From contig JAJJXM010000042.1 of the NCBI GenBank assembly GCA_024516155.1, positions 186,001 through 250,000 on the forward strand: DNA of 64,000 bases, written 5' to 3'. Below the pieces are notes generated by a model that did no database searches, was not told where the DNA came from, and saw nothing but the letters and a program-made list of their open reading frames with translations. Positions within the stretch are counted from its first letter, which is position 1. Each line of letters opens with the position of its first letter. Position numbers and translations under genes: made by a program. Shown here in pieces: positions 15,257-50,063 of the stretch. This DNA is from Pyronema omphalodes. Taxonomy: Eukaryota; Ascomycota; Pezizomycetes; Pezizales; Pyronemataceae.

Positions 15257-15385
15257 GCACATTTTCGTATGAGAAGCAAGGGGGTCAGTTTAGGAAACAT
15301 TATTACACAAAGTTTGCTTAATGCGACGCGCCAAATCGCGCTAACTTCGGGAGGTCTATGTGTAATCTAAGCGTCAATCGGCGTT

Positions 15386-15408
15386 TAAGGGATACCCGTC
15401 GGCAAGCA
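15386..15408 (+). promoter_or_regulatory. Conserved 23-bp element of KEP promoter A
   Basis: TAAGGGATACCCGTCGGCAA plus GCA, identical in all three KEP promoters although surrounding sequence has drifted. It lies 387 bp upstream of the start codon. Role as a transcription-factor site is inferred from conservation. Confidence 0.55.
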
Positions 15409-15605
15409 ACGTCCTACACTAGTATTTCTGCACAATACATAGCTAATTGACAGTATAGACAGCAATCTGTATGACCGAAAATCTTCACGGGAGCTATTGT
15501 ATCAATGTTTGTGTTTCAGCCTGTACACAATGATGAAACTGCAATGAAAAGTGGATAAACTACATATGCATTAAAAACACTGTAAACTAGGCTCTTTTTT
15601 TCTGG

Positions 15606-15613
15606 ATATAAAC
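15606..15613 (+). promoter_or_regulatory. TATA box of KEP gene A
   Basis: ATATAAAC, 167 bp before the start codon and followed by a C/T-rich leader. The same word is at the equivalent place in the other two KEP promoters. Confidence 0.6.
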
Positions 15614-15772
15614 TGGCCTTGGAACTGTTGTTCAGGATATCTCTATCAGTCTTCAACATCTTCTCACCTGTCCCTACCGGCTCCATCCATCCTTCACGTC
15701 TCAGATTCTCAACCCCATTCGGCATCAATCAAGTTAGCATTCATCAATTACAAATTTACATCCATTTACACC

Positions 15773-16246
15773 ATGAAATTCTCCATCATCGCCATTACCG
15801 TCGCAACATCTCTAATCCCCAGCATCATGGGCCATCCCGTCGTACCCAACGTAGAAACCAAGCAACTGGAGTCTACCGAAGTAGCCAATAACAGTACCAT
15901 GAAACCAACCTGGTTCTTACTCTGGAAACGAGAGACTCCCTCTACCACAATCGACTCCAAGAACAATACCATGAAACCAACCTGGCGCACCATCTGGAAG
16001 CGAGAGGATCCTTCTACCGACAACTTGTATAACAACAGTACCATGAAACCGACTTGGCGCACCATCTGGAAACGAGAGCATGCTTCTGTCTCCGGAGCCA
16101 CAGGTCATCCCGCAGCACCCAACGCAACACTCCCCTTCGCTGGAACCAAGCACTTCGAATCCTCCAAGGCAGCAAAAAACAACACAATGAAGCCAGCTTG
16201 GCATTTGATATTCAAAAGAGAGCAACACACTACCAGACTCTACTAA
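15773..16246 (+). CDS. Secreted KEX2-processed repeat protein, copy A (4 units)
   Basis: A 157-residue single-exon precursor. Residues 1-20 form a signal peptide with a hydrophobic core ending at SIMG, followed by HPVVPNVETKQLES. Four units then end in Lys-Arg, the KEX2 site: MKPTWFLLWKR, MKPTWRTIWKR (twice) and MKPAWHLIFKR. Each core is preceded by an N-[NS]-T sequon. Spacers between units are acidic (ETPSTTIDSK, EDPSTDNLYN), and the tail after the last KR is EQHTTRLY. There are no cysteines. Expected processing is secretion, KEX2 cleavage and carboxypeptidase trimming, releasing Trp-rich peptides. This is the most divergent of the three paralogues: its first and last units have changed core residues. 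Known KEPs include pheromone precursors, RiPP precursors and cell-surface repellents; which applies here cannot be read from sequence. Confidence 0.85.
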   Translation: MKFSIIAITVATSLIPSIMGHPVVPNVETKQLESTEVANNSTMKPTWFLLWKRETPSTTIDSKNNTMKPTWRTIWKREDPSTDNLYNNSTMKPTWRTIWKREHASVSGATGHPAAPNATLPFAGTKHFESSKAAKNNTMKPAWHLIFKREQHTTRLY

Positions 16247-16537
16247 AACCTCAGTTACTGCAGTGCGGTAGGGGAAATGATATAAAATTGTAAACCACAA
16301 AGAGGGAGGCTTAATAAGTATGGGGACTTGTATAGATAAGATTAGTGGTTGTTGGAAGGTTAGCATTTTGATTGAGTACATAGTTAGAACTCAATGTATT
16401 ATAATTTGTATAGATGTAGAATATAGATACTAGTTTGGATTTCCGCCAGAATGTGGCACAGATTACAAGTGACAAAGAAAAGCCAGCAAGGAGATCGGGA
16501 GCAAAAAGGAACTTCACTGAACTCTGTCAGAGCAAAA

Positions 16538-16654
16538 ACTACAGTATCCGGGATTCCCGTCTGGTCACCCACGACAGTACTAGCCGGACGATATCATGCT
16601 TAAATAGCGCAGAGCGGACGGGATGCGTTGTATTCATGATTCTATGACCGTAGC
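16538..16654 (-). rRNA. 5S rRNA gene, divergent type, copy A
   Basis: 117 nt carrying conserved fungal 5S features: CCCGTCCGCTC, TTTAAGC, and TAGTACTGTCGTGGGTGACC in the 3' half. The ends pair (GCTACGG with CTGTAGT) to make helix I. GAATCATG pairs with CATGATATC with one bulged A, as in canonical helix II, though the bases differ from the usual GGTGTGG/CCACACC: these are compensatory changes. A T5 run follows the 3' end as a pol III terminator. It lies about 290 bp past the KEP A stop, on the opposite strand. Confidence 0.8.
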
Positions 16655-16660
16655 TGATAG

Positions 16661-19600
16661 AATTGTACCTTAAAAATATATAATGTACCAATATTGCAAG
16701 GAAGTGTTATCTGACCTTTCAGAACTCCAATAAAAACCAGCAGGCAGAAGAGGGGTGGCAACAGGCCCAAGAAATGAGGTGCGCTCTGGGGCGGATCCCA
16801 GCGAGACTCTAAGGTAACAGCTAGAGTCTCGAAATGCATTCAGACTGTAGCATAAGTCATAACCTTAAGGTTTGGAACATTCAAGAAAATAAAATAAAAT
16901 CTAAATCCAATTCTGATTCTGATTCTGGCTCATAGCCAATCACCCAATCACCCGACCCACCATAACTTCGGACGTGGTTAATTTCAATAATCTGATTATA
17001 TAACTATCACAACTGAACTATCCATCCAAATGAAACGAATAACAAAAAACGTACATTATCATCGCTGTCCTCATCCTCATCAATTACCACCATCCTTTTA
17101 AAAATGCGAACAGCCCGAAGACGCGCTAGTCCAGCGGGATTCTAAAACCTCTTTTACAACAGCAAAAGCCTCGCGAGCTGCTGACATTTTTATTTATTTA
17201 TGTATCCGGTTTTGTCCTTTTGGTTTGACTGGCCGTTGTACTGAATAATCCACCGGCCATAGCGTAAACATCTAAGCCTGATATGGTGCGCCAACAGAAG
17301 CAGAATATTACAATGTAATACCATGTAACCTTGTGAGCCAGGGATCAGAATAACGCGGAGAGTCAGGAGTATGTGATGGTATTGTCGTTCACTGAAGGTT
17401 TTACCAAGTATTGACATGTCCTGTCATGGAGCTGAGTAATCCGAAGACGAGAAAAGAAGCATCAATTATGGAGAGCTAGAAAAAAGCGGTTAGACAACAG
17501 AACCGCCCCCCCCCCCCCCCCGCCTGTGTCGCTCTTTACTAAAATACTGTCGAAGGAGATCAAACTATAAGCCCCTCTTCCTTTCCCATTGGTATTTCTT
17601 TGGAGTCTGGCTTCATTTATCGTCCAAGGATCGTTATCTATCTCTTCGGCTTCCGAAGTATTGCCCATATAAACCTCTTTAGTTCTATAGACGTCATTTC
17701 AGGAAATTCCAGCCCAGTTTCTACCCTCTTTTATCTTTGGGACGAAGGAGGATTGATTTGCCATTATCTTTCCCTTTCCACAAGGAACGGTATTCAGTTC
17801 ATTCCATCAAATCCTCCCAGTCTGCGAACTGGGTAGAGCCATTTTTTAAGTAGAGATGTAGCTACAGATTTGAAGTTATCGTCAATATGTCGCGGCTTCT
17901 TTAGTAGAATTAACTTTCTGTCTGGTTTTTCCAAAGCGTTTCTTGAGCTGTGTGTGAATTTTGTCGAGGTTGACTTCCTTGTACCGCGCTACCGGTTTCC
18001 TTGGAATTTAATTACCTATGTAATTAGAAACAGTCGGTAAGACACACCAGACACCAGAAACGGATTTTTTCGTCGAGGTTGATAAAGCTATTCAAAATCA
18101 TATTCCAACTAACCATAAAATTCTCCATCGTCGGCTTAATATTGGACCTCGAGATTGTACACAGCTTGACCACACTAAAGAACGCCGTAATAGTACCATG
18201 GATATGGCTCAGGGTCGATGGCTAGTTGTCACTGCCACCAATGATTTGACTGTAAATCCAAGACAAAAAAAGAAAAACCCCTGCATTTTCAAGGGATCTG
18301 TTCTAGTCGCAACTTCTTTCTTCTCTGATACTTGAAAATCGGTTGCCTGGTACCGTCCATGTTACCAAGCACAAAGCCATAGTGACTCAGGAACGGAAGC
18401 CTTTACGAGTGCGTCTTGGACGTTTTCTTTTTCAAATGGACACTGAGAGAAAACAGGACCACGAGCGGCAACACTCAACGGGAGTGAACCCCAGGTGGAA
18501 ACACTCAACGGCAACAGTAATCGTGTCTGAAGAAGATCTGGCAGAGGAAGAAAGGGATAGACCTCCGTCCGCAGTCTACAGAAGACGTTACGATGGCTTA
18601 GTCGTGGTAATAGACATCGTAAAAAATGAGTGGACCAACTTTATGAGGCGGAGAAGCTACTTGACACAGGAGTTATGAGGACTGGAGCAGATCGCCCCTG
18701 CTTCCAAAATCATGGTACCCGAAGAAGCAGTTAAAATCCATCTATCTAGTATGTCAATTTCATAGTAACTCCCATGCAAGTCCCGCCAAATGAGGAGGCA
18801 TTGTGATAGGATTCATCCGGAACGTTTCGTGATATCTGGTGACGCTGATCACCGCAACGGAACACAAGAAGTGCCACATTCTTGATACCATCTGAACAGA
18901 GATATAGGAAAAACGTATTAACTTTAAACTGATTTTACTACACCTGAATGGATAATTAGTGTCTATTCACATACAGGCCGGGAAACGGAATAACTCACGA
19001 GGTAGTTGGTATGTATCAATTCTCCCTTTCGGCAATGACGCGTTAGCGAGCACTTTAGAATTTCCTCTGGTAACGCATGCTGATGCTCTAATATCCGTAG
19101 CGTTCAAACCCTGGATCCCGAGGTACCGCTTGCATAAAAAGGAACCAAACAACACAGAGACTCCAACGGCTCGCTGGCGGTGTGTTGCAATTTGTAGGCT
19201 TCCGTAGGCGTTAGGATACACGCTGAGCTTTGCTCGTATTCGCTCCAACACAACAGCAACAATCACCAACCCAGGAGGTACGGGATACTTCGATGTTTTT
19301 ACCTGAAATATAGCAGTCAGTCTTTCCCTGCTCGTTGGTGTTTCCTGTCTCTCTGCTTCGATTTCGGGGTCTGGAAGGTTGCGGCGCAGTTGCAAGGCTT
19401 GTGTGTGATGTTCGCTTCTGGTATTTCCATGTTCTTCGGGCGACCAGCGACGGTTTCGTCAAAGATACCGTTTCCACTGAAGTGAAAATATCGGTGGTAT
19501 GCCACTACGAACGGGAGGCCTTAACTCCAGCGTAATCGTGGAAGTAAAGCTGCAAACCGGGATATGTAGTCACTATACTTGATGAGGCGGGCTTCATGCG

Positions 19601-22600
19601 ATCCGGTTTATCGAGAGATATGATACCGTAGAGGAACCCGTTCCTAACACCTGATGTTGGTGTGATGGAAAGCGAGGAGGTTTAGCCGCCATTTAAAGTT
19701 GAAGACCTCGTAACCGATTTTCTATCCTCCTAGCACAATAATATATCACACGAAAGGCAGCAGCAAACCGCCTTTGGAAAGAAGAATACAATATCGTCAG
19801 TGAGGGTCAAGTGGGTACTCCTGGAGAGTTCTAGGTATGCCAACGAAGTGATGCGACGCAAAAGACATACATAACTTGATCGCCAACGACAACAAAAACA
19901 AGCTAGCTACTAGCTAGCGTGAGTTGAAGATATCAGATCGAGATGAAATTGGCGATACCAGGGCCAGAGATAGCGCTGACATGGTGGGGTTATGGTAACC
20001 CTGGCCAGATGTGTTGAGCATACTCTATGACATCAGAGCTGTATGACAAGTGCTGACAGCTTGGCCATTATCGATTGGGCCTCTTTGTGACCCTTTTCCT
20101 CAAATCTTGATCTTCGCCCACCAGAACTGAGAAAACCAGCTTTTAGTCGGCCGAGTCCTGTAAAGTATTATTTTTTTCTGGGTAGTTTTTCTAATGTAGA
20201 GCGAGCGGAAGGAATCCACCCCAGATCCGACAAAAATAGCCAACAAGTCAACCTCTGATATCGTAATATCTAGCTCCAGTTCTTCGGGACACTACAAGTA
20301 TCCACATCAGGAATGGCTTGGATTCATTCTGTTACGCCGATGTGAAATTTTCAATCCAGTCCTTTGGGACCTACAGGTACGGAGTCTCTGTCTAGGTACA
20401 CTGAAACTCATGGAAACATCCGGCAGTCGAGCAACTTTCCGTCTTTTTCTTCGCTTCTGCATTAAGTACATAGAAGATTAATATCATTAAGGTACGGAAA
20501 CGTACCCCATAAAGCCATACCCCGATGTTTCTAGTATCTGAAGACATTACAGATGGGCGATTTGCAGCACACAAGGAAACTTCAAGTTTGGTCGAGATGG
20601 ATGGATGGAAAACATGTTCTCAAATCCACCTTGAGTATGCCATTGGTTCGATTATTGTGCCTATCACCCATACCAGCATTGAATTGTCCGAGGTTATTGC
20701 TGATCTGATGAGTATTTTTGGATTGGTAATAGTGGAGTGCCCTCATCTTTTCAGATAAACTCACGTAGAGTGCTCTAGCTATCTTGTTGAGAAACCGGAC
20801 GGACCACGAGAGAGCTGTTATGACATCCCTGGAAATGCTTCCAGTAAATAGTCATCTCATTGATTTGAGCAAGGTTACAGACGCGATGCCGTGGTAGAAA
20901 GTTTTGTTCCACTCATTCTGTATTCAAATCAAAAGCAAGGCGCATTTTGTGGCAAGAAATCGTCTCCGTTAAAAGCATCGAGCAATTGGAGATACAAGAC
21001 TCCGCAAAGCTGGCGTATACATTTGCCATACCGGTAAAGGCTACACCTGTAACCATCTTTGTGTAATCCACATGGTTTATCTGTCGTAAACGGAGCAGTA
21101 CCAGTGACTTTTCTAACCATTTTGAGGCCTGTCAACTGGTAGAGCTCACTCGGGGGAAAAAGCAAGCCAAAAGCAGAACCAACGAATAACCCCAGTTTCC
21201 AAAGTCGTTGGTTCACGTTCAGACGACTATCAACAGACTTATTCATGTGTGACCTGTTTAGAACAGCCAAAGAGCGCATAGAGTATCGCAATATTCAAAT
21301 AGCCAAGGAATATGTATTCTCGGCTTTTGGCCCTCCACCATCCACTTCACCGCATTCCAGTAGCTGAATCGTTCGGTGTGCTAATCTTGCTTCTGGCTCA
21401 CTGCCACTCCTATGTCCCTCATTCTTGGAAATGCTGTAGGTTGCACTCTGCCACATATCACATCCCGAAGAAATGGAGCCCCCCTCAGTCTTTGGACTCC
21501 TGAGCCCTCCCACTTTATGAACTTGGTATGCGCCTGGGCCTACTGATATGATATTCGGCAACGTAAAAACCTAACCAGGGGCTCACCCCATGAGAATGCT
21601 CAAAACCAAGCAAAAAGTTCCAGGGTGATGATGATGTTAGAAGTGAGTATTACAGATAACACATCTATGATCTCTCCTCAGAAAGCAAAGGACTTTGTCA
21701 CGACCAGTCAAAACTTGAGGTGCATGCTAAAATCTGGCTGCTGAAAGGACAATCAGGTGGCGACGATTGCAGACTAGACACAAAGGCTTCGAATGTCTGG
21801 AATAAAAGAGTGACGTCGCGCAGGACTACAGGGAGCAGAGTGATTGATCATGAAGATGACTAGTTGGTGCAGCTGTATTGATTATACAACATGGCTCGGC
21901 ATCCATAGATTATCTCAGATGCAACCAGTCCTTCAGATGTATCCCTAGGAGAAGTGGCTTGGGAGCGGTAACTTGGAGGTGGTGGCTTGAGAGTGGTGAC
22001 TTGGGGGGCGTCCAGCTGCCGCTTGAGCTCCAAGGCGTTGTAGGCGGGCCTTTCCAGACGCTGGAAAGGGGGAAGCACGTTCCCTCCTTGCATCCTTCAA
22101 CATTGATGTCACAGAACTCCAGATCGTTCTCGGCCCAATCAATACTAATACCCTTATTATCATCAACGAAATTTCTCTTTCACTTCAAGTGTGCATTTAG
22201 AATTTATGATGATTGATTAGTATCGTGGCTCGACGAGAGCCTTTGTTGAATCAGTGCTTTTTTGTTAACTGGGACTTCTTGATGATTGTTACTTTATCAT
22301 CCGCATTGATTTTAACCTGTCGTTGGAGATATGATTCCGTGGTGGAGACAGGTTAGATCAGTAGTTTAGGGTTGCATTTGAATCTTCTTTTCCGTCGCCG
22401 AGTTATGCAACACGCAACGAAGCACCAACAGTAAGTACTGATATTACTTTGCATCAACCGCCATTTTCCACACATCATGCCGCCGCCTTGGTGCTTTCCA
22501 GGTTGAACGATAAAGCGCATTACAGGTGAATATTCATTGGCGTGGCCGACCGCAGACTTTGCACTGGATAACTGCTGCAGCGAATGCGATAGCATGGCTG

Positions 22601-23858
22601 TGACTGCCTAAAGAATATGTAAACAGAATCCCGATCTACAATATATCATGAGCTTCATAAATTACCTGTGGTTGAACGTAGAAACTTACAGATTTTGTTC
22701 AGCCGCTTCAGCTGTGAATTAGAGGCCATATTTTCCACGGCACTGCCTTTGTTTGCAAGGTTGCATTGTAGGAAAATAAAGAAGCAATGCTACAATTGGC
22801 CGACTCAATTTCCAAAAATAGGTCCATACTCCTCCCCTGCTTTCTCTTCTATAATTCGTGGCCATATGCTGCTTACAACAGGGGAGCCGCAAAGTTGCTA
22901 TTAAGAGGAGTTGGTTGTTGCGGACATAGTTGCCAAAATTTGGCTGATATTGTGCGGTATCGCTCGGTGAAGGCAACGGTATGGGTGCGTGACATAATGT
23001 GCACATACGGTTACAGTTTCTGTTGTGGCGAACTGGTATGGTGGAAAACTTCGTAACAGGTGATAGATAGACCCATAGACCATGAAGCGTCGGTGCCAAG
23101 CACCAACCTCCATTATTCAAGGGCATCCACTATTATGGTGGTTAAATGAATGAAATAGGTAGGAAAATTATGATGGTTTATAAACAAATTCCGTGGCATG
23201 ATTTAGAGATATGAGTGAGATGGCGTGAATAGGGCGATGTATCACGTGGGGCGGTTCGTTACAGTTCCTATCCGGCTCGGGAAGATGTGGTGACGTGGTG
23301 TAAACGGGACAATGAAAACAAACGAAATAATTTAAACAAAATTCACGCAATAATTGTTAATTACGAACACTAACGGTTTTATAAACTCCGATTGGTTGGT
23401 GAATACGAAATAGCGAAAAGCGGCAAAACAAATTTGAAATGCGACAACGGCAAACAGAAATACGGGTTTGGACGTATTTCGAAAAATGAGGTTCAAGTCT
23501 ACAGGAAGGGTATTACTCGGACATTTGTTTCATCACAAGTAGTAAATATGAAATCGTGCTTGCTTCATTGTACCTTTCAATGAGAACTTGAGCAACTTGA
23601 ATAGTTTCAGCTGTCCGGTTTCATGGGAATTGAAACTTTCGCATTGGGGCCATTGCCACATCATTAAATTGATGAGATATAAATTGAGGTAGTTTGGGTC
23701 AACATCAGGGGTCCACTTTGTACTTAAGACCTGGATCCAAAAAATACTCCCTTACCAAAAACCAACCCTCAGTAAGTTTGACACCGCAAACCGCCGGCAA
23801 AACAGATTGAAGCCTGCATCTATAATTTTCATTCTATTTCTGACAATCTTGGCTCACA
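16661..23858. other. Long gene-poor stretch between KEP block A and the Ser-rich protein
   Basis: No accepted genes in about 7.2 kb. Frames of 110-142 codons (18343..18678 plus; 18967..19395 and 20929..21291 minus) have no domain, no signal peptide and no splice-consistent extension. A C16 homopolymer lies at 17506-17521. No tRNA or intact transposon ends were found. Confidence 0.45.
17506..17521. repeat. C16 homopolymer
   Basis: Sixteen consecutive C, one of at least six long G/C runs in the window. Confidence 0.9.
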
Positions 23859-24500
23859 ATGAGTGAATCCGACGAATACCAGCCGGTGCCTTCCTCCAAA
23901 TCCGACACCTCTGATTCTTCGGAGTGTGATGATGCCGCCTACACTACCTGGTCTTTGACGGACAACGACATCTCTGTAGACCCTGAAGAGCAGCACGACC
24001 CTGATAGCTCCGAAATTGACTATCCCGATACTTCCAGCTCGTCCTCGTCATGTTCTGAGTCTTCTGAAGATGGCTCAGAACGTCCTCGTTACAGGTGGAA
24101 ACAATATTCTCCGCCAAGCTCAGAAAATTCTGATCCCCCCCGTCAGCGTAGGATAATCCCCATAAATGCCCGTACCTCCAATCCTCCTCAACCTAGGTCA
24201 GGTTCAGTCTCGGCTCCCACCCCAGGCCCTCGGAAGGGACCACGGGTGCGAAACTTACACAGACCTAATAACAGACCACCGCCTTCGGAGCAGATGGATA
24301 TCTCTGCATCTTTAGTTCCTGCTGGATCTATTAATTCAAACAAGGTAGATGGGAAGCCTGATCGTATGGAAGTGACTATCGCCGGTAATGAATCCTCTGA
24401 GCCTTCGGGTATTCAGACCCCTAATTCACTATCCGACCCCATCCCTACTTCCTCAAAGCCTAGCTCATCATCCAAAGGCGATCCTCAAACATCTAACTAA
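23859..24500 (+). CDS. Ser/Pro-rich disordered protein, hypothetical
   Basis: A 213-residue single-exon frame starting in a good context (CTCACAATGAG) after a C/A-rich leader. The N-terminal 75 residues are acidic and Ser-rich (runs such as SSSSSSCSESSED), with many Ser followed by acidic residues as in casein-kinase-2 targets. The middle (about 80-145) is Pro/Arg-rich (PPRQRR, RKGPRVRNLHRPNNRPPP), and the tail is Ser/Pro-rich again. No folded domain, membrane span or signal peptide is visible. An intrinsically disordered nuclear or cytosolic protein is likely. I do not recognise the family. The frame is much longer than neighbouring chance frames and has codon-like composition, which supports a real gene. 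Confidence 0.55.
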   Translation: MSESDEYQPVPSSKSDTSDSSECDDAAYTTWSLTDNDISVDPEEQHDPDSSEIDYPDTSSSSSSCSESSEDGSERPRYRWKQYSPPSSENSDPPRQRRIIPINARTSNPPQPRSGSVSAPTPGPRKGPRVRNLHRPNNRPPPSEQMDISASLVPAGSINSNKVDGKPDRMEVTIAGNESSEPSGIQTPNSLSDPIPTSSKPSSSSKGDPQTSN

Positions 24501-26359
24501 CCATCTTTTCTCTCGTATTCCATCCCTAACTCACAGTGAGGGGATAAGGAAAGGCATGATAGTCTGAGAGGGCATATTGAAGTACAATTGGCTGATAAAC
24601 CTACCCTCATATAATAGAATATAATGGTGGTACTTTCTCATGTATTTATGGTGTATTCTCTGTTGGTAGATAATGAATTGGCCTTTGCATGGGCATAGTA
24701 TAATGAGGTAGCTAAACCACCACTAAATTAGAGTCGGAGACCCTTCACTATCAGCCACGATCATCTTGGCTTCGGCATGGCATCGCAGAGACAGAAACAT
24801 TGGAGGGGAGACGTTTGATATGTTGTTTATAGAAATCGCTAAAGGAGCCTTCAATATTTTCCCTCAAAAGACAGGGAATGATGATTGGTAAAGGCTGCAA
24901 CACCCCCCCCCCCCCCCCTCCCCCCGTCTCATCCCTGCGCTTGAACAAATATAAAGAAAAACAAGACTTCAATGCCAAGATTTTCCATATCCCTGGCTCT
25001 GCTTCTCCGTGACTAAATCTACCAATTTGTCTCTCTTCTTTCCTCGAATTTTCTGCCTTGTGCTGACCCTTGGACTTCTCTTTTTTTCGTGTTGCTTATG
25101 GCCCCCTTTCAGCATGTAGTCTGCATTGGACATTTGAGAGCCCGTCATTTCGTGGCATGATGTATTTGAGTGAGTTTTAGTATGCCGTTATTGTCTCTAA
25201 AGATGATAAGAGATTTGAGTAAGAAATTCAATATGGCATTATTCGTAGCAAAGACATAGAAAATGTTTATAGATGGGCCAGGGCCGTATTTTGAAATCTC
25301 ATGATTTTGACTCACCACAGTCAATTAAGGTGAGACCGTTTTACATGTCCATTCATGGATTATCAATTGTGGGTATGTAGATATCTATGGCTATACTATT
25401 TCCGTTAGGCCTCAATCTCGGATTCACTATAGATAGGAAACTCGTACTGGATTCCTGAGTTCCTGGATAGAGGTATGGAATGGGTGTGGTAACGGCGTCG
25501 ACATATATATGATAGAGCATGAATGTCACTGAAGATGTCGATGATGATGATTATAATAATCATAATTGTTTTACTCTATACGCAACTTTAATGACTGTAA
25601 CAACAGTTTCCCGAAATCAATCAATGCTTGAATATACATAAAATAGCATAGATTAGGTAAGCGGGGCCACTCTTGACATATGAAAAGTTACCTCACACCA
25701 TCGAGCGGAATCACTACTGAGCGCCGGATGAAACCCGCCTCGAGCGTAAACGCTAGTAACCCGAATCATTTTGCTTAGTACAGATGTAAGGATTCATGCC
25801 ACAGTACCGAAATACAGGGACTACTATGTACCACCAAACTACTCGGGCCGCCCTCACTTAAGATATGATCACATTTCAGATTTAGCGAATCGGATGAAAA
25901 AAGTGTTATTCTGAAGCTTCTCGAAGATATTAAACGCCACATACTTCCTTTCGTGGTGTTATATGCACTTACTTGACATCCGAGGGCGACACAAACACGC
26001 CTGTAAGGTGCATCCCGTCTAAGATTTAGGTATTGACACTTTGACGTCAAGTAAGGGATACCCGAAATTGGGCTACGGTTGTATTAGTACGGATGATAAT
26101 CTTTTGATTATGTACTCAAGTTTTCATGTCTAGCCGGGTCGAGTATACTGTTGATATAATTGCCTTTTGCATGTACCTTACTGAAAATCCAGCATTTAAG
26201 TAATTCTGAGCTTTGAACAGAGTATGGGCTATACGGAAATTCTGTTACAAATGGCTTTTTCATTTTGAGAATCACTTATATTCTTCATACTGATAAACAT
26301 TCATATTGGGCCTCAGAATTCCATCATCCTTTTTGTACGAAAGCAGAGACACGTTCAAG
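24501..26359. other. Gene-free stretch upstream of KEP block B
   Basis: Holds a C16-T-C6 tract at 24903-24925 and otherwise AT-rich sequence. At 26052-26064 the 13-base word TAAGGGATACCCG repeats the first half of the KEP promoter element, about 380 bp upstream of the full copy. No coding frame accepted. Confidence 0.45.
24903..24925. repeat. C16-T-C6 tract
   Basis: Sixteen C, one T, six C, then GTCTC. Homopolymer of the same kind as at 4381 and 17506. Confidence 0.9.
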
Positions 26360-26430
26360 GAATATTTCTCGAGTTTGCTTGATGAGGCACGCTAAGTTTC
26401 AAAAGTCCAATCCGAACGTCAATTGACGTC

Positions 26431-26453
26431 TAAGGGATACCCGTCGGCAAGCA
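26431..26453 (+). promoter_or_regulatory. Conserved 23-bp element of KEP promoter B
   Basis: Identical to the element in promoters A and C, 381 bp before the start codon. Confidence 0.55.
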
Positions 26454-26645
26454 GCATCCTACACCATCACTCTTCTGCACCATAGCCAATTCACAGTACT
26501 GACAGCAATCTGCATGACTGAAAATCTTCATGGAGGCTATTATACCAAAAATCGTGTTTCAGTCTGTACACTTCGATGAAACTGTAGTAGATTGAATAAA
26601 CTAAATATTCATTATTAGCATTGTAAATTAGACTCTTGTTTCTAC

Positions 26646-26653
26646 ATATAAAC
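26646..26653 (+). promoter_or_regulatory. TATA box of KEP gene B
   Basis: ATATAAAC, 166 bp before the start codon. Transcription would be expected to begin near or after 26675, which argues against translation from the in-frame ATG at 26671. Confidence 0.6.
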
Positions 26654-26811
26654 CAATCTTTGGATCGCCGTTGGATAGCTCTCTATCAGTCTTCAGCTTC
26701 TCATCTGTCTTTACCGGCTCCATCTATCTTTTACATCTGATATCGTCAGACTCAATCGGCATTTTGCATTTTTTTTTAAATCAAAATCCATCAATTACTT
26801 CGGTCTACACC

Positions 26812-27504
26812 ATGAAATTCTCTATCATAGCCGTTACCCTCGCAACATCTCTCGTCTCCGGCATCATGGGCCATCCAGTAGCTCCTTACGTAGAAACAAA
26901 GCAACTGGAATCTCCCGAGATAGCTAAGAACGATACAATGAAACCAACCTGGCGTACAATCTGGAAGCGCGACGATCCCTCCATTACCGACTCCAAAAAC
27001 AACACAATGAAGCCAACCTGGCGTACCATCTGGAAGCGCGACGATCCCTCCATTACCGACTCCAAAAACAACACAATGAAGCCAACCTGGCGTACCATCT
27101 GGAAGCGCGAGGATCCCTCCATTACCGACTCCAAAAACAACACAATGAAGCCTACCTGGCGTACCATCTGGAAACGAGGGGATGCCTCTCCCACCATCGA
27201 CTCCAAAAACAACACCATGAAGCCAACCTGGCGTACAATCTGGAAACGAGGGGATGCCTCTCCCACCATCGACTCCAAGAACAGCACAATGAAACCAACC
27301 TGGCACAACATCTGGAAACGAGAGCATGCCTCTAGCCCCGGAATGATGCGTCATCAAGCATTCTTTAACGCTGCACCTAACGCCACAGCCCCCAACGCGG
27401 GAATTAAGCACCTGAAATCATCCAAGGCAGGTAAAAATAATACTATGAAACCGACTTGGCGTCTCGTATCTAAGAGAGAGCAACATACTACTAGACTTTA
27501 CTAA
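26812..27504 (+). CDS. Secreted KEX2-processed repeat protein, copy B (7 units)
   Basis: A 230-residue single-exon precursor and the longest paralogue. A signal peptide (MKFSIIAVTLATSLVSGIMG) is followed by HPVAPYVETKQLES and seven KR-terminated units: five MKPTWRTIWKR, one MKPTWHNIWKR and a final MKPTWRLVSKR. The first spacers are 23-residue units (DDPSITDSK or EDPSITDSK before the sequon), the next are 24-residue units (GDASPTIDSK). At DNA level these are 69- and 72-bp tandem repeats that are nearly identical, so the array expanded recently. The last, longer spacer holds an Ala/Pro/Asn-rich insert (about residues 182-200) and KHLKSSKAGK. The tail is EQHTTRLY. The upstream in-frame ATG at 26671 is rejected because it lies inside the expected leader and is not in frame in copy A. 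Confidence 0.87.
   Translation: MKFSIIAVTLATSLVSGIMGHPVAPYVETKQLESPEIAKNDTMKPTWRTIWKRDDPSITDSKNNTMKPTWRTIWKRDDPSITDSKNNTMKPTWRTIWKREDPSITDSKNNTMKPTWRTIWKRGDASPTIDSKNNTMKPTWRTIWKRGDASPTIDSKNSTMKPTWHNIWKREHASSPGMMRHQAFFNAAPNATAPNAGIKHLKSSKAGKNNTMKPTWRLVSKREQHTTRLY
26935..27318 (+). repeat. 69/72-bp in-frame tandem repeats in KEP gene B
   Basis: Six adjacent units, each containing ACAATGAARCCAACCTGGCG and ending in AAGCG or AAACG at the KEX2 site. All lengths are multiples of three, which also keeps antisense frames open. Confidence 0.85.
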
Positions 27505-27771
27505 AACCTTAATTACTGAAGCGCGGTAGGGAGAAGAAAATTAAATTCTTAACTAAAAATAGGGAGGCTTAATAAGTTAGTGGTTGTTGGAAGGTTAGCA
27601 TTTTGATCAAGTAGTTATTGTATTATAATTTTTGTATAGATGTAGAATATAGATACTAGTTTGGGTTTCCGCGAGAATGTTGCATATATTATGAGGATAA
27701 AGAGAGTACGAGGAAACGTGAACGGCGACAAAAAAAGTAAAAGAATTTCGCTGAACTGTGTCGAAGCAAAA

Positions 27772-27888
27772 ACTACAGTATCCGGGATTCCCGTCTGGTC
27801 ACCCACGACAGTACTAGCCGGACGATATCATGCTTAAATAGCGCAGAGCGGACGGGATGCGTTGTATTCATGATTCTATGACCGTAGC
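27772..27888 (-). rRNA. 5S rRNA gene, divergent type, copy B
   Basis: Base-for-base identical to copies A and C over 117 nt while the adjacent KEP flanks differ, with the same T5 stop at its 3' side. It lies 268 bp past the KEP B stop on the opposite strand and 276 bp from the end of the S-formylglutathione hydrolase gene. Confidence 0.8.
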
Positions 27889-28163
27889 TGATAGGGCAAT
27901 GGTTTTTCTTATATTATACCAAATAGCAAAGAGCCTGTGTCTCACTCTGGGTTGATTTCGACTCCAGATCACCTGAACTCCGTCACACGTTTACGGTTGA
28001 TAATCATGATTCATCAATAGTAGATGGTATGTGTTAAATGAGAAAAACAGGCTTGCATTAACGCCAAGGATATCCATAGTTACAACTTCCACTGGGTATT
28101 CATTTCATTCGTTTCACCTCTACCATCATCAGCTCCGCCTTTTCAGCCTCTTCTGGGAGCAAT

Positions 28164-29225
28164 TTACTGCTTCAAGAACTTGGCGTGGTACTCGATATGG
28201 TCCTTTCCAAAAGAAGAGATGAAGTAGTAGCTGTGATCGTAGTCCTGTTACAAAAATCCAATTAGACTTCGTTCATCCTTGATAATTCATCCTCCTTCCA
28301 ATTTACAATAACTTACCGGCTGATATCTAACCTCCACCTTAACATCCGCCTTTGACTCCTTTGCAGCTGCCTCGAAGTTCTCTGGCAACAACTGTCCCTG
28401 CTTGTAGAAGTTGTCCCCGGTTCCAACATCGATAAGTGCAGCGAACTTATCACCCTCCTTCAAGCCCTTCATAAGCTCCGTAGCATCATGCTCAGCCCAC
28501 TTCTCCTTATTCTCCTCCCCAAAGTAACCAGTGAAAGCATTCTGTCCCCAAGGGCAGTTGACGGGGTTGGAGATAGGAGCAAACGCCGAGCAACTCTTGT
28601 ACATTCCAGGGTTCTTCAAAGCCAAAGTAAGAGCACCATGACCACCCATAGAATGTCCAGTAATGGAAACCCTAGTACCATCCAACTGAGGGAAAGCTTT
28701 CCACAAAGCCTCAGGAAGCTCCTTAGTAATGTAAGAATACATTCTGTAGTTCTCCTTGAACCCCTCAGTAGTAGCATCTACGTAGAATCCAGCACCAGTT
28801 CCAAAGTCCCATGCATCACGGTCGCTAATCTTGATGGTCTCAGTTCCGCGGGGTGAGGTGTCGGGGTAGACAATGGCGATACCGTGTTGAGATGCATGGG
28901 CTTGGAGGAATCCTTTCTCGGAACAGTTGTCGCCAGTGCAGGTTAGGCCGGAGAGGTAGAAGAGGACGGGAACCTTGGTGGAGGGGCTGGCATTGGAGGG
29001 AAGGTAGAGGTTAAGGGCCATGGGAGTCTTGGTCTCAGAGCCTAGGGTTATAGGGTTAGTTTAAAGTTTCATGACTTGCAGCATCTTTTAATATTGATGA
29101 TATTACGGCGAATTGGGGAGTGTAGAATCAGATGAGGGGCATCAACAGGGGGACGCACTCTGGTGGGAAAGCTTCAAGAGCTTTCCGCCGAAGCTGGCAA
29201 TGGTGGCTTTGGTCTCAAAAGTCAT
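28164..29225 (-). CDS. S-formylglutathione hydrolase (esterase D)
   Basis: Exons 29159..29225, 28317..29041 and 28164..28244 (minus strand) join in phase across introns of 117 and 72 nt with donors GTGCGT and GTAAGT, giving 290 residues, the usual family length. The nucleophile motif GHSMGGHG (Ser153), the catalytic Asp in the region of VGTGDNF and the catalytic His in DYDHSYYFI (exon 3) form the alpha/beta-hydrolase triad. SGLTCTGDNCSEKG and NPVNCPWGQNAFTGYFG are family signatures. The enzyme hydrolyses S-formylglutathione to formate and glutathione, the second step of glutathione-dependent formaldehyde detoxification, in the cytosol. Neither end carries a targeting signal. It lies head-to-tail behind the mitochondrial-type gene upstream. 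Confidence 0.95.
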
Positions 29226-29659
29226 GGTGGATAAGAATTTCGGGGTTAATCGCGTATAGTTTCGTAGGCCTAGAGAAGGTTTGTAAAAATGCCGGATTGT
29301 GGTGGTGATGGTGTTCATATAACGTTGCTTAGATGCTAGGTTCTAGAGCTGTCTATGTGCCTTCGGACGGCGGGGTTAAGCGGGGATGACGTTTTGGTGA
29401 TTATTTACGCCAAGAGGACATGGGGAAACATCGGGATCTGCACCAGTTCGGACACTTTTTTCATTATTTTGAAACTAACCGTCGCAATTCATCATCTCCT
29501 TCTCCAAATTCAAAATATAAACACACAGAAGATATCTTCAAAAATCCACAGAAATCAACCCAACCCAACCAATCAAGTAAATCCCACACATTGTTGTACA
29601 TAAGTAGAAACTTTTTTATATATACCCCGAAACGCCGAAGAAATGCAATAACTCGTGTT
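29226..29659. other. Short intergenic between two minus-strand genes
   Basis: Promoter region of the S-formylglutathione hydrolase gene and 3' flank of the next gene. No gene is seen. Confidence 0.5.
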
Positions 29660-30364
29660 TTATACAAAGTTGTAGTCGGCGGCAGACTTTGCTTGTCGTC
29701 GCTTTCGTTGCGTTGCGGCTTCCTGTGCCTCTGCTGCCGCTGCTGCTTGTTCTCGCTGGAGTTGACGGGCCTTCCACAAGACATCATCCTCCTCGAGCTC
29801 CTTGATCACTATTACTCAATTAGCCATCGTTCATTCAATCTCAAGCCTCCATGAAATTCCGTCCCGCCGTGGTAACATACCTTCCTCCCATGCCTTTTCC
29901 TCTTTCTCATCCCCGGCACCAAGAACCTTCTCAACATCCACTTCCTCACCCCTTCCAATTGCCTCTAAAACCTCCTTCAACAACGCGATCTTCGTATCCG
30001 CCTTCCTTTCAAACTCGGCATAATCCCGCTTTAACTTAAGTTGCTGAATAGCCTGTGATCCAATCAGGAGAAAGATCCACTACACTCTCGTCAGCCTGCA
30101 TACCTTGGGGGATGCTGTCGTTGAATTGTATCGTACAATAAAAAACGTAGCCGGATTCCATCCTTTCTTTGCCTTTGCTCCCTGTGCACCGGGAATGCCG
30201 GAAGTCTTGAGGTAGACGGAAGGTTGCAGGAAACGTGGGATCCACCGAATTTCCCGACGGGCAGCTGAGTAGACGTGGAAGGAAGCGGTGAATTGCGGGT
30301 TGCTGAATCGTGGCAGTGCCGCAGAGGCCCGCAAAAACGGCCGAAGTCGTGTCACCAAAGTCAT
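29660..30364 (-). CDS. Small mitochondrial-type fungal protein (DUF5321-like)
   Basis: Exons 30104..30364, 29881..30052 and 29660..29808 (minus strand), with GTATGC and GTATGT donors and CACAG and ATAG acceptors, join in phase to 193 residues. The N-terminus (MTLVTRLRPFLRASAALPRF) is Arg-rich and lacks acids, as in a mitochondrial presequence. A KKGWNPATFFI block follows, then a charged helix in exons 2-3 (KRDYAEFERKADTKIALLKEV, GRGEEVDVEKVLG) and an Ala/Arg tail ending SAADYNFV. I recall this order from fungal DUF5321 proteins, for which no function is known to me. Relatives usually continue NPATFF into a hydrophobic helix; here VRYNSTTASPK stands at that place, so the first splice site may be off. 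Its start is 274 bp from the divergent Cdc4-like gene, suggesting a shared promoter. Confidence 0.72.
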
Positions 30365-30638
30365 TGTCGTGATGTTTCTGTAGATTTCCAACGGGAGAGC
30401 TCGGACGGAGCAAAAGTTAAAACGCGAACATGAGGCTCCTCCATCGACCAGCCAGCCCCACCTACCCAACCTAACCCAACTAGTGGAGCAGGGATACCGT
30501 AACCGGGGCAACCGGCGCGAATGTGAGGTCACTAATGTTACCCAAGCTTACCTTTGCTCTGCGCTCCAAACACCACCGCGTGAACGACTTGCACTCAACC
30601 TTATACGCGAATCTGCAGAATATCAACCAATAGCAAAC
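30365..30638. promoter_or_regulatory. Divergent promoter of the DUF5321-like and Cdc4-like genes
   Basis: 274 bp separates two outward-facing start codons. It contains CTAACCCAAC and GTAACCGG words but no clear TATA box. Confidence 0.4.
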
Positions 30639-31392
30639 ATGGTAAGAAGCCCCCATTTCGATCCGCGTGATCCTCATGATCTTCCAGTTCTAGAAGCTTT
30701 ACAGAAGCTTCTTCTCAACCTCAGTCCTCAAGAGCTTCCCAGCCTCCTCTACAACTTACTCCGCGTTTACCATAACTACCACTTTAACTCCAAAGAACCA
30801 ATAGCTAACTTATGATATTCTCTAGGCAACGCCTTCCTCCTTCCCACGTCCACCAAAATCCTCTCCCCTTCCCTACAGCAGCCCCAACGCCGCCCGTAAT
30901 CGTACCGCCTCCGGCAGTCTCAACACCCTCAGTCCAGCGCAGATCAGCCAGTTAAAAGAATCCTTCTCCCTCCTCGACAAGGATGGGGACGGTATCATAT
31001 CTCCGCAGGACCTAGCCTCTATGCTTTCCTCCCTCGGTCTCGACTCTAGTCCTAGCAGCATCAACACATACCTTAGCTCCGCTCCCTCGCCTTTCAACTT
31101 AGCTTCCTATTTAACTCATTTATCCCAGCAATTATCGTCACTGGCTCCTATGAGCGATCTCCTAGCTGCCTTTGAAGCATTTGACGAAAATGACGATGGG
31201 TGTGTAGATGTGGATGAATTACGCTCAGCTCTTACAGGCATGGGCGAGAGGATGACGGATGAAGAAGTTGATCGGGCCATGAAGGGGTTTACGAAACGTC
31301 GAGGACTGAGGGGGAAAGATGAATTTGGGTATAGGGAGTTTGTAGGTTTGCTACAAGGAAAGGGAGGGGATGGAGAGGATACTGAGAAATAG
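30639..31392 (+). CDS. Cdc4-like EF-hand myosin light chain
   Basis: Exon 1 is just the ATG (30639..30641), followed at once by a GTAAGA donor. A 184-nt intron ends in TCTCTAG, and exon 2 (30826..31392) carries the rest, giving 189 residues. A Pro/Ser-rich N-terminal extension (residues 2-35) precedes two intact EF-hand loops, DKDGDGIISPQD (52-63) and DENDDGCVDVDE (121-132). The paired lobes are degenerate, as in myosin light chains. Extension and layout match filamentous-fungal regulatory light chains of the Cdc4/MLC2 type, which bind IQ motifs of class II myosin at the cytokinetic ring. Calmodulin is excluded because it has four intact loops and no extension. A start-codon-only first exon is easily missed by gene finders. 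Confidence 0.85.
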
Positions 31393-31864
31393 GATTTCGA
31401 AGTGGACTTGATGAGAACTGGGTCAAGAATGGGTGAGAGGCCAGGTTCCAGGATGATGAACGGAAGAGAGTCGAGGATGGCTATGAAAGAGGAAAGAGAT
31501 AGGGAGAGTGCTAGGAAGGTAGAGAGGACCTTGAGCAAGAGACATGAGAGGAGTTTGTCCAGAAGGGGAAATAGAAGTCTCTCCAGGAGAGGAGACAGAA
31601 CAATTAACAAGGGGAGTAATGGCTTGATGGATACACATGATGGTTTATGATTAATTTTTGCGATGTACGATACCAGAGGATTTTACAAGAGGAGGATAGC
31701 TTAGGCAATAAAGGGCGTATTTTTTGCGGTTTATACATATACTACTAGTTTCACAAACGTTCTGTCTTGTACTCCGCTGGTGAAAAGGCCAAGGTCCCGG
31801 GTGGACCACACAGTCGGATTCCGAAAGAAAAGTATTATTGATTGTATCTGTTATTGACGTCTAA
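31393..31864. other. 3' flank of the Cdc4-like gene
   Basis: An 82-codon Arg/Ser-rich frame (31402..31650) begins 10 bases after the stop. It is low-complexity, has no independent promoter and most likely lies in the 3' UTR. Confidence 0.4.
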
Positions 31865-31870
31865 CTATCA

Positions 31871-31987
31871 GCTACGGTCATAGAATCATGAATACAACGC
31901 ATCCCGTCCGCTCTGCGCTATTTAAGCATGATATCGTCCGGCTAGTACTGTCGTGGGTGACCAGACGGGAATCCCGGATACTGTAGT
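31871..31987 (+). rRNA. 5S rRNA gene, divergent type, copy C
   Basis: Identical over 117 nt to copies A and B. It begins GCTACGGTCATAG, has A-box-like TTTAAGC and C-box-like GTGGGTGACCA, ends CTGTAGT and is followed by a T-run. The end pairing GCTACGG/CTGTAGT (with G-U pairs) closes helix I. Confidence 0.8.
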
Positions 31988-32270
31988 TTTTGCTAGCAAA
32001 TTCCATCACAGTTCCTTTTTTGTCTCCGTTCACGTTTTCTCGCACTCTTTTTTATCCTCATAATCTGTGCAACATTCTCGCGGAAATCCAAACTAGTATC
32101 TATATTCTACATCTATACAAAAATTATAATACAATAACTACTTGATCAAAGTGCTAACCTTCCAACAACCACTAATCCTATCTGTACAAGTCCCCATGCT
32201 TATTAAGCCACCCTCTTTCTGATTTATAATTTTATATTATTCCCCCTATCGCACTGCAGTAATCAAGGTG

Positions 32271-32801
32271 TTAGTAAAGTCTAGTAGTATATTGTTCTCT
32301 CTTAGATACGAGACGCCAAGTCGGTTTCATTGTGTTGTTTTCAGCTACCTCAGAAGATTCGAGGTGCTTAGTTCCTGCAGTGGGGGCTGCTGGATGATTA
32401 ATGACTCCGGGCATAGAGGCTTGCTCTCGTTTCCAGATGGTACGCCAGGTTGGCTTCATTGTGCTATTTTTGGAGTCGATGGTGGTAGAGGGCTCCTCGC
32501 GCTTCCAGATGGTACGCCAGGTGGGCTTCATGGTGTTGTTTTTGGAGTCGATGGTGGTCAAGGAATCATCTCGCTTCCAGATGGTACGCCAGGTTGGCTT
32601 CATGGTGTTGTTGTTATATAGGTCGGTGGTGGAGGGATCCTCGCGTTTCCAGATGGTACGCCATGTGGGCTTCATTGTATCGTTCTTAGCTATCTCGGGA
32701 GATTCTAGTTGCTTTGTTTCTACGTAGGGAGCTACTGGATGGCCTATGATGCCGGGGACGAGAGATGCTGCGATGGTGATGGCGATGATAGAGAATTTCA
32801 T
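32271..32801 (-). CDS. Secreted KEX2-processed repeat protein, copy C (5 units)
   Basis: A 176-residue single-exon precursor with signal peptide MKFSIIAITIAASLVPGIIG, then HPVAPYVETKQLES and five KR-terminated units: four MKPTWRTIWKR and a final MKPTWRLVSKR, each after an N-[NSD]-T sequon. Spacers are EDPSTTDLYN, DDSLTTIDSK, EEPSTTIDSK and a longer EQASMPGVINHPAAPTAGTK. The tail EQYTTRLY matches the other copies. The first spacer (HPVAPYVETKQLESPEIAKN) and the last (HPAAPTAGTKHLESSEVAEN) are clearly related, so unit 1 and the final unit descend from one ancestral unit and the short-spacer units expanded between them. The start is chosen by the TATA position, as for copy B. Confidence 0.87.
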   Translation of the reverse strand: MKFSIIAITIAASLVPGIIGHPVAPYVETKQLESPEIAKNDTMKPTWRTIWKREDPSTTDLYNNNTMKPTWRTIWKRDDSLTTIDSKNNTMKPTWRTIWKREEPSTTIDSKNSTMKPTWRTIWKREQASMPGVINHPAAPTAGTKHLESSEVAENNTMKPTWRLVSKREQYTTRLY

Positions 32802-32950
32802 GGTGTAGGCCGATGTAATTGATGGATGTTGATTTAAAAAATGCTGATTGCAGTCTGACGAGATTAGATGTGAAAGATAGATGGAGCCGGTAGAGACAGA
32901 TGAGAAACTGAAGACTGATAGAGTGCTATCCAACGGTGATCCAAAGATTG

Positions 32951-32958
32951 GTTTATAT
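32951..32958 (-). promoter_or_regulatory. TATA box of KEP gene C
   Basis: ATATAAAC on the minus strand, 157 bp before the start codon, the same word and near-equal spacing as in A and B. Confidence 0.6.
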
Positions 32959-33144
32959 GTAGAAAAAGGAATCTAATTTGCAATGCTAACAACACATAGT
33001 TTATTCAATTTACTACAGTTTCATCGCGGTGTACAGACTGAAACACAAATTTTGGTATAATCGTCTCTATGGAGATGTTCGGTCATGCAGATTGTTGTCT
33101 GTACTGTGAATTAATGATGGTGTAGAAGTGCTAGTCTTGGATGC

Positions 33145-33167
33145 TGCTTGCCGACGGGTATCCCTTA
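33145..33167 (-). promoter_or_regulatory. Conserved 23-bp element of KEP promoter C
   Basis: Identical to the element in promoters A and B, 366 bp before the start codon. Confidence 0.55.
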
Positions 33168-33294
33168 GACGCGAATTGACGTTCAGATTACACACAGACC
33201 TCCCGAAATTGGCGCGATTTAGCGCGTCTCATCAAGCAAACTTTGTGTAGAAATATTTCCTAAACCGACCCCCTTACTTCTCATAGGAAAATGT

Positions 33295-49885: not shown

Positions 49886-50063
49886 TGTATGTATGTATGT
49901 ATGTATGTATGTATGTATGTATGTATGTATGTATGTATGTATGTATGTATGTATGTATGTATGTATGTATGTATGTATGTATGTATGTATGTATGTATGT
50001 ATGTATGTATGTATGTATGTATGTATGTATGTATGTATGTATGTATGTATGTATGTATGTATG
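49886..50063. repeat. TATG microsatellite, about 44 copies
   Basis: An uninterrupted 178-bp run of the tetranucleotide TGTA/TATG. Because the unit is four bases, all frames stay open on both strands and give repetitive pseudo-peptides (YVCM, YIHT). Confidence 0.95.

What the first reader, a model, noticed from the sequence alone, without database searches (positions are those of the whole stretch)
15773..32801. Three-member family of secreted KEX2-processed Trp-rich repeat precursors
Copies A, B and C each have a signal peptide, 4, 7 and 5 units of MKP[TA]W-x3-[WFS] followed by KR, an N-x-T sequon before every core, and no cysteines. The precursor architecture is that of fungal KEPs (pheromones, dikaritin-type RiPPs, repellents). 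The core differs from the known classes I can recall: no Tyr-x-Ile-Gly as in ustiloxin-like peptides and no CxxxxC-type mating pheromone. Nearly all cores hold aromatic residues four apart (WRTIW, WFLLW, WHNIW, WHLIF), which could stack or be cross-linked. This is the best candidate for an undescribed peptide system in the window.
Basis: partly seen in the sequence, partly recalled or inferred. Interest (0 to 1): 0.88.

Follow-up and report, generated by a model that had tools for sequence, protein, structure and literature searches.

The report
Fungal Trp peptide precursors with glycosylation sites
A fungus carries three intact genes (and one eroded copy elsewhere) for secreted-looking proteins that seem built to be cut into many copies of one short tryptophan-containing peptide, each with a selectively kept sugar-attachment site, an unusual variant of a widespread class of fungal peptide precursors of mostly unknown function.

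Summary
In detail: A (15773-16246 +, 157 aa, 4 units), B (26812-27504 +, 230 aa, 7 units) and C (32271-32801 -, 176 aa, 5 units) have a hydrophobic N-terminus, no Cys, and 16 of 16 units NxT-MKP[TA]W-x3-[WFS]-KR; these 16 KR are their only dibasic sites. [quoted passage not shown] New here: (1) a fourth, mostly eroded paralog D on contig C46; (2) selection acts on the sequon N and T, on MKP[TA]W and on KR, not detectably on the three residues between the aromatics; the second aromatic is W13/F1/S2, so an aromatic cross-link is not the conserved feature; (3) 11 of 16 units hold the same MKPTWRTIW; (4) all four copies end in an identical convergent 5S rRNA gene where homology stops; (5) no UstYa match on this contig, while the genome's two UstYa loci have KEP-like genes of their own. 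Best reading: unmodified, probably N-glycosylated 21-22-residue signal peptides. A mating-pheromone role is less likely but open: STE2 is present and its ligand was not found. Expression and processing are untested; the large protein database could not be searched.

The parts
15773..16246 (+). precursor A, 157 aa, 4 units (WFLLW, WRTIW, WRTIW, WHLIF), uninterrupted ORF
26812..27504 (+). precursor B, 230 aa, 7 units (5 x WRTIW, WHNIW, WRLVS)
32271..32801 (-). precursor C, 176 aa, 5 units (4 x WRTIW, WRLVS)
15025..15772 (+). upstream region of A homologous to that of C (to -748) and of B (to about -409); holds TATA-like ATATAAA at -167 and CTATCAGTCTTCA at -130
15512..15539 (+). inverted pair TGTTTCA (15512-15518) / TGAAAC (15534-15539), resembling two Ste12 pheromone response elements; present in A, B, C, absent in D
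   Evidence: the motif's meaning is recalled
26409..26811 (+). upstream region of B homologous to A and C
26555..26582 (+). the same inverted TGTTTCA/TGAAAC pair, copy B
32802..33531 (-). upstream region of C homologous to A
33018..33045 (-). the same inverted pair, copy C
16536..16655 (-). 5S rRNA gene, convergent with A, 289 bp after its stop; homology between copies ends at this gene's 5' end
27770..27889 (-). 5S rRNA gene, convergent with B, 265 bp after its stop
31870..31989 (+). 5S rRNA gene, convergent with C, 281 bp after its stop

Best explanation
A, B and C are preproproteins that enter the ER, are N-glycosylated at the NxT before each core, and are cut by Kex2 after each KR in the Golgi; a Kex1-type carboxypeptidase removes KR. 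They release mostly 21-22-residue peptides of the form (E/D/G)xxS...N(glycan)xTMKPTWRTIW, longer first (31 aa if the signal is cut before HP) and last (41-50 aa) pieces, and the octapeptide EQ[HY]TTRLY. The product is linear and not cross-linked. Because three diverged genes keep the same core in 11 of 16 units, it most likely acts as one secreted ligand with a fixed partner (a self-signal or a recognition signal), dosed by gene and repeat number, rather than as a diversifying effector or toxin. Shown: ORFs, repeat architecture, constraint on NxT, MKP[TA]W and KR, shared upstream region and 5S unit, the eroded fourth copy. Inferred: secretion, glycosylation, cleavage, trimming, signalling.
For: Architecture and dibasic census, 16 of 16 KR at core ends and none elsewhere. 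Parsimony on the 16 units: sequon N+T 7 synonymous / 0 nonsynonymous (binomial P 2.7e-5), MKP[TA]W 11/1 (1.3e-8), KR 7/0 (4.5e-5), x3 5/8 (0.29). The residue inside the sequon varies (N10, S4, D2) and is never P. MKPTWRTIW in 11 of 16 units. Tail EQ[HY]TTRLY kept in 3 of 3 with silent changes. A proprotein-convertase P-domain stretch exists on C1 (PF01483, 61.9 bits, positions 1-57 of 86). ATATAAA and CTATCAGTCTTCA at similar places in 4 of 4 copies. No PF11807 (UstYa) match on C170.
Against: No transcript, protein or mass data. Hydropathy only for the signal peptide. A conserved sequon can serve folding or export of the precursor, so the glycan need not be on an active product. One paper states that KEPs do not undergo post-translational modification (PMC7099791, passage). 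The parsimony test rests on a neighbour-joining tree of 42-nt units that may undergo gene conversion, and it ignores transition bias, which helps silent change in twofold codons. No homolog from another species could be obtained, so conservation is seen only among paralogs of one genome.
Confidence: 0.5

Rival explanations
1. The family is this fungus's alpha-type mating pheromone, the ligand of its Ste2 receptor, under Ste12 control.
For: STE2 gene present (187 bits; 297-codon open stretch; the match runs past one in-frame TAG, taken for an intron but not tested). Exact-pattern searches for known pheromone types gave no repeated KEX2 precursor: WCxxxGQxCW 0 hits, CxxPGQxC 9 hits and WCxxxGQxC 4 hits, none in such a precursor, PYGxPxG 2 hits, none in such a precursor. 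TGTTTCA...TGAAAC pair in 3 of 3 intact copies, 0 of 1 eroded copy. The peptide ends in W, as several alpha pheromones do (recalled).
Against: No STE13 signature: A or P at position 2 after KR in 0 of 16 pieces, at position 3 in 12 of 16. No resemblance to a pheromone named in the texts read; 'MKPTW' is in 0 papers of the library. Three interspersed intact genes plus one eroded copy is unusual for a pheromone (recalled). TGAAACA is expected 0.12 times per 700 bp here, and the three upstream regions are related, so the motif counts about once. The pattern searches can miss a split, unassembled or divergent pheromone gene.
Confidence: 0.17
2. A dikaritin-like RiPP: the aromatics four apart are cross-linked by an oxidase encoded elsewhere.
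For: The genome holds UstYa genes on C157 and C195. Most cores hold two Trp (13 of 16).
Against: No UstYa match on C170 or C46; both UstYa loci have a KEP-like gene of their own close by (C157 core KETLYVWxS between UstYa matches, C195 Y/F-rich repeats about 1.8 kb away). No Tyr in the core; last aromatic W13/F1/S2; x3 not detectably constrained.
Confidence: 0.07
3. A secreted effector, antimicrobial or surface-active (repellent-like) peptide that acts on other organisms or on the hyphal surface.
For: Trp- and Lys/Arg-bearing core. In two plant-pathogen time courses with the host, six of nine and four of five KEPs were differentially expressed (PMC6339444, Results read); six C. cinerea KEP knockouts lacked an axenic phenotype and the authors suggest a role towards the biotic environment (PMC9769878, passages). 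Family turnover: one of four copies eroded.
Against: Core kept rather than diversified across paralogs. An acidic spacer and a sequon beside the core do not look membrane-active (inference). No activity data.
Confidence: 0.22
4. Repetitive secreted glycoprotein that works uncut; KR is incidental.
For: Sequons throughout; no cleavage data.
Against: KR 16 of 16 with silent codon change (7 synonymous, 0 nonsynonymous) and no other dibasic pair.
Confidence: 0.04

Closest known systems
KEX2-processed repeat proteins (KEPs; Le Marquer 2019 PMC6339444, Umemura 2020 PMC7329392)
   Same: Secretory-looking start, at least three near-identical repeats separated by Kex2 dibasic sites; repeat length within the commonest 9-24 aa class of Dikarya (PMC6339444). 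KEP genes near another KEP gene without UstYa are known (767 among 6120 in PMC7329392).
   Different: Core NxTMKP[TA]Wx3[WFS] is not among the conserved motifs named in the sections read; every repeat holds a constrained N-glycosylation sequon; copies are bounded by 5S rRNA genes. Supplementary KEP lists and figures could not be read.
Ascomycete alpha-factor-type pheromone precursors
   Same: Repeat precursor, KR sites, Trp-containing peptides.
   Different: No STE13 dipeptides, no Cys pair or PGQ, multiple paralogs, sequon in each repeat (yeast prepro-alpha-factor has its glycans in the pro-region: recalled).
Dikaritins (ustiloxin, phomopsin, asperipin)
   Same: KEP-type precursor with aromatic residues in the core.
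   Different: No UstYa match on the contig, no Tyr; this genome's UstYa loci have other KEP-like genes.
Basidiomycete KEPs with C-terminal Trp (PMC9769878, passage)
   Same: Core ends in Trp before the Kex2 site.
   Different: Those carry STE13 motifs; no sequence relation was tested.

Membership tests
KEX2-processed repeat protein (KEP) | Secretion signal | tested here: inconclusive
   Hydrophobic residues 3-19 in 3 of 3; no dedicated predictor available
KEX2-processed repeat protein (KEP) | Three or more near-identical repeats separated by dibasic Kex2 sites | tested here: met
   4, 7 and 5 units; KR in 16 of 16, no other dibasic pair
KEX2-processed repeat protein (KEP) | Kex2 protease in the genome | tested here: inconclusive
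   One PF01483 match over cut-off on C1, positions 1-57 of 86 with one stop in the frame (intron possible); the catalytic domain was not checked
KEX2-processed repeat protein (KEP) | Peptides actually released | not testable with these tools
   Needs mass spectrometry
Dikaritin RiPP | UstYa (DUF3328) gene close to the precursor | tested here: not met
   Six PF11807 matches, two on C195 and four on C157, none on C170 or C46
Dikaritin RiPP | Tyr (the residue cross-linked in known dikaritins) in the core | tested here: not met
   No Tyr in any of 16 cores
Alpha-type mating pheromone | STE13 signature (XA or XP right after the Kex2 site) | tested here: not met
   A or P at position 2 in 0 of 16 pieces; at position 3 in 12 of 16
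Alpha-type mating pheromone | Known core type (Cys pair with GQ, or PYGxPxG) | tested here: not met
   No Cys, no such motif in A-C
Alpha-type mating pheromone | Activates the species' Ste2 | not testable with these tools
   STE2 gene present
Ustilago Rep1-type repellent | Surface-active or fibril-forming peptides on aerial hyphae | not testable with these tools
   No sequence comparison made

The most novel reading that the evidence does not exclude
A polyprotein system for an N-glycosylated peptide signal: each repeat is selected to carry an NxT sequon fused to MKP[TA]W, so Kex2 releases near-identical glycopeptides whose glycan is part of the message (stability or receptor recognition), and the genes spread by recombination between dispersed 5S rRNA genes.
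Probability: 0.33. Interest if true: 0.66.

Novelty: new variant of a known kind. Interest (0 to 1): 0.46.

Why it matters
KEPs are reported from nearly all fungi surveyed (PMC6339444), and their functions are largely unknown (PMC9769878, abstract). If the sequon is occupied, this would be a fungal KEX2 peptide released as a glycopeptide, which searches for unmodified peptide masses would miss. The same-core, three-gene design gives a simple genetic test, and the genome's own UstYa-linked KEP-like genes are a built-in contrast. The 5S-bounded copies suggest a way in which peptide genes can move about a genome.

Tried and rejected
Viral contigs and bacterial/archaeal genome contigs gave no relative. 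Pfam, NCBIfam and PDB sequences: no match to A-C above a family cut-off, no PDB match to B better than E 1.2. AlphaFold2 of B with A and C: mean pLDDT 32, all 230 residues under 50, not interpretable and not used; no fold search made. Four exact pheromone patterns found no repeated precursor. Three weak rows on C152 (E 0.16, 0.338, 7.75) were dropped: no precursor-like ORF among the ORFs of L007. Literature on 5S-mediated dispersal and on glycosylated KEX2 peptides (one search held no paper) was seen as listings only, except passages of PMC7099791 and PMC6265332 and the parts of PMC6339444 and PMC7329392 named in the full report; nothing decisive. Passages of PMC9233826 gave only the general account of dikaritins.

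A cross-linked aromatic pair as the defining feature was considered and rejected on the unit statistics. 'Antisense ORFs' over the repeats were rejected as a by-product of the repeat: the signal-like start, the TATA-like box and the constraint belong to the sense strand. Species was not identified; Ascomycota is inferred from STE2 and UstYa.
Full report
OBSERVATION. They encode 157, 230 and 176 aa without Cys and hold 4, 7 and 5 units. In 16 of 16 units the order is N-x-T, M-K-P, T (15) or A (1), W, three variable residues, W (13), F (1) or S (2), K-R. These 16 KR are the only pairs of basic residues in the three proteins. The first 20 residues are hydrophobic and alike in the three copies. 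None of the three matches a Pfam or NCBIfam family above its cut-off; B matches no PDB chain better than E 1.2.

GENOME CONTEXT. The window is C170:186001-250000 of a 60.8-Mb, 232-contig genome with STE2 and UstYa genes, so a filamentous ascomycete (inference; species unnamed). Neighbours tested include an S-formylglutathione-hydrolase-like esterase at 28287-29021 (Pfam Esterase; the finer name is recalled) and an EF-hand protein at 31021-31392, both between B and C, and a FYVE protein at 46108-46842 (10 proteins tested, three of them A-C; the window was not annotated gene by gene). A search with B finds one further paralog, D, at C46:757359-757937 (-), 192 aa. D keeps the start and one full unit (NDTMKPTWHNIV-RKK); it has two sequons, of which only the first stands before such a core, its later modules lack MKP[TA]W, and it ends early. 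Between D and C the differences per nonsynonymous site rise to 0.47 in the later part of the alignment, against 0.12 there between A and C (B was left out of that alignment). Searches with the A upstream region, the C 3' region and D each returned the same four places and no fifth copy (the tool scores only the best candidates).

WHERE SELECTION ACTS. Parsimony over a neighbour-joining tree of the 16 units gives, as synonymous/nonsynonymous changes: sequon N and T 7/0 (about 5.4 nonsynonymous expected, P 2.7e-5); middle residue of the sequon 3/3 (P 0.02); MKP[TA]W 11/1 (P 1.3e-8); x3 5/8 (9.4 expected, P 0.29); last aromatic 1/2 (P 0.14); KR 7/0 (P 4.5e-5). So the glycosylation acceptor and MKP[TA]W are as tightly kept as the cleavage site, while the stretch between the aromatics is not detectably constrained. 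M and W columns have no synonymous codons, so for them the test has no power. The P values are approximate: short units, possible gene conversion, no correction for transition bias; the T of the sequon alone, a fourfold codon, shows 5/0. The octapeptide behind the last KR, EQ[HY]TTRLY, is also kept with four silent differences and one replacement and may be a second product. MKPTWRTIW itself occurs in 11 of 16 units: A 2 of 4, B 5 of 7, C 4 of 5: three genes, mostly one peptide.

HOW THE COPIES AROSE. Each of A, B and C is followed at 265-289 bp by a convergent 5S rRNA gene (Rfam, 87.1 bits each); D by one at C46:756879-756998. The 120-nt 5S sequence is identical in all four, the stretch between stop and 5S is only partly alike (81-83% of A and B to C, 74% over a part of D), and homology ends at the 5' end of the 5S gene. 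Upstream, homology runs to -748 between A and C, -403 between B and C and about -478 for D, with two short further pieces shared by B and D. D also has a 5S-like copy (97.7-99.2% identical over 122-129 bp, not an exact 5S) about 1.75 kb upstream in the same orientation, so it lies between direct 5S repeats. 5S genes are scattered in this genome: 47 scored of 3070 first-look candidates, a lower bound; the three window genes are not even among the 47. The simplest reading is that a 5S-bounded segment was copied between dispersed 5S loci by recombination. This is an inference; the two literature searches (listings only) showed no matching title. That the 5S is identical fits either gene conversion or constraint on the 5S itself. 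Against full neatness: only D has a second 5S-like copy close upstream.

PROMOTER. ATATAAA and CTATCAGTCTTCA lie at similar places in 4 of 4 copies (spacing 37, 37, 37 and, in D, 31). TGTTTCA followed after 15 bp by TGAAAC lies near -250 in A, B and C and is absent from D. That resembles paired Ste12 pheromone response elements (recalled). TGAAACA is expected 0.12 times per 700 bp in this window, and the upstream regions are related, so this is a lead only.

COMPARISON WITH KNOWN KINDS. KEPs: PMC7329392 (section 6 part 1 and section 7 read, passages elsewhere) counts 7878 KEPs, 838 types and 2560 without homologs; 22% have a UstYa (DUF3328) gene near; among the 6120 without UstYa, 767 have another KEP gene near. 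PMC6339444 (Results read) names conserved core motifs; MKP[TA]W is not among them, although one, YVW[G/A][G/S], resembles the KEP at this genome's C157 UstYa locus. 'MKPTW' occurs in 0 papers of the library; supplementary tables could not be read. The genome's UstYa loci act as a control: C157 (KETLYVWxS repeats with KR sites, between UstYa matches) and C195 (Y/F-rich repeats, KR at two places, start not resolved, about 1.8 kb from UstYa) each have a KEP-like gene of their own, and neither reading frame holds any NxS/T. 'Glycosyl' does not occur in PMC6339444, occurs once in PMC7329392 (a hydrolase family) and twice in PMC9769878. Three term searches for glycosylated KEX2 peptides listed no title reporting one; apart from passages or sections of a few of the listed papers these were not read. 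PMC7099791 (passage) says KEPs do not undergo post-translational modification, which, taken at its word, is against my reading.

MECHANISM. Most likely the precursors enter the ER, receive N-glycans at the sequons, and are cut after KR to release linear 21-22-mers ending in Trp. Shared cores and purifying selection favour a ligand with a fixed partner over a diversifying effector. A mating-pheromone role is possible because STE2 is present and no conventional pheromone gene was found by four exact patterns, but the STE13 signature is missing (A or P at position 2 in 0 of 16 pieces) and the family is multicopy. A cross-linked dikaritin is unlikely.

VERDICT. A real, constrained, unmatched KEP family with a constrained glycosylation site in every repeat. 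It belongs to a known kind in architecture and differs in this feature; function is unproven. No expression data and no homologs from other fungi were available.

Noticed in passing
window 16536-16655 (-), 27770-27889 (-), 31870-31989 (+): Three full-length 5S rRNA genes, each convergent with and just after a precursor copy; homology between copies stops at the 5S 5' end.
   Followed up: partly
L020 (G000:C46:753000-762900): Eroded fourth paralog D lies between two direct 5S copies (C46:756879-756998 and, 5S-like, about 759679-759806).
   Followed up: partly
window 16729-16836; L054:1377-1484 (C46:764276-764383): A 108-bp stretch just beyond A's 5S gene matches, at 90.7%, a place on C46 some 6 kb from D: a dispersed repeat or a trace of an exchange between the two loci.
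   Followed up: no
L021:7683-8153 and UstYa matches on C157:546789-552196: UstYa cluster with its own KEP, repeats KETLYVWxS, resembling the YVW[G/A][G/S] motif of PMC6339444: a likely dikaritin-type locus.
   Followed up: no
L023:8866-9678 (G000:C195): Long Y/F-rich repeat protein (KKPFNYNFNYEPFKYKNFKYNGDFNYRKPKPEDG) about 1.8 kb from a UstYa gene.
   Followed up: no
window 16220-16243, 27478-27501, 32274-32297: C-terminal octapeptide EQ[HY]TTRLY after the last KR is conserved with silent changes; may be a second released peptide.
   Followed up: partly
window 15512-15539, 26555-26582, 33018-33045: Inverted TGTTTCA/TGAAAC pair near -250 in the three intact copies, absent from D; resembles Ste12 sites.
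   Followed up: partly
window 34112-35072: ORFs that look like exons of a Cys-rich protein (no Pfam match for the first ORF).
   Followed up: no
window 49763-50150: Long TGTATG-type microsatellite giving repeated ORFs on both strands.
   Followed up: no
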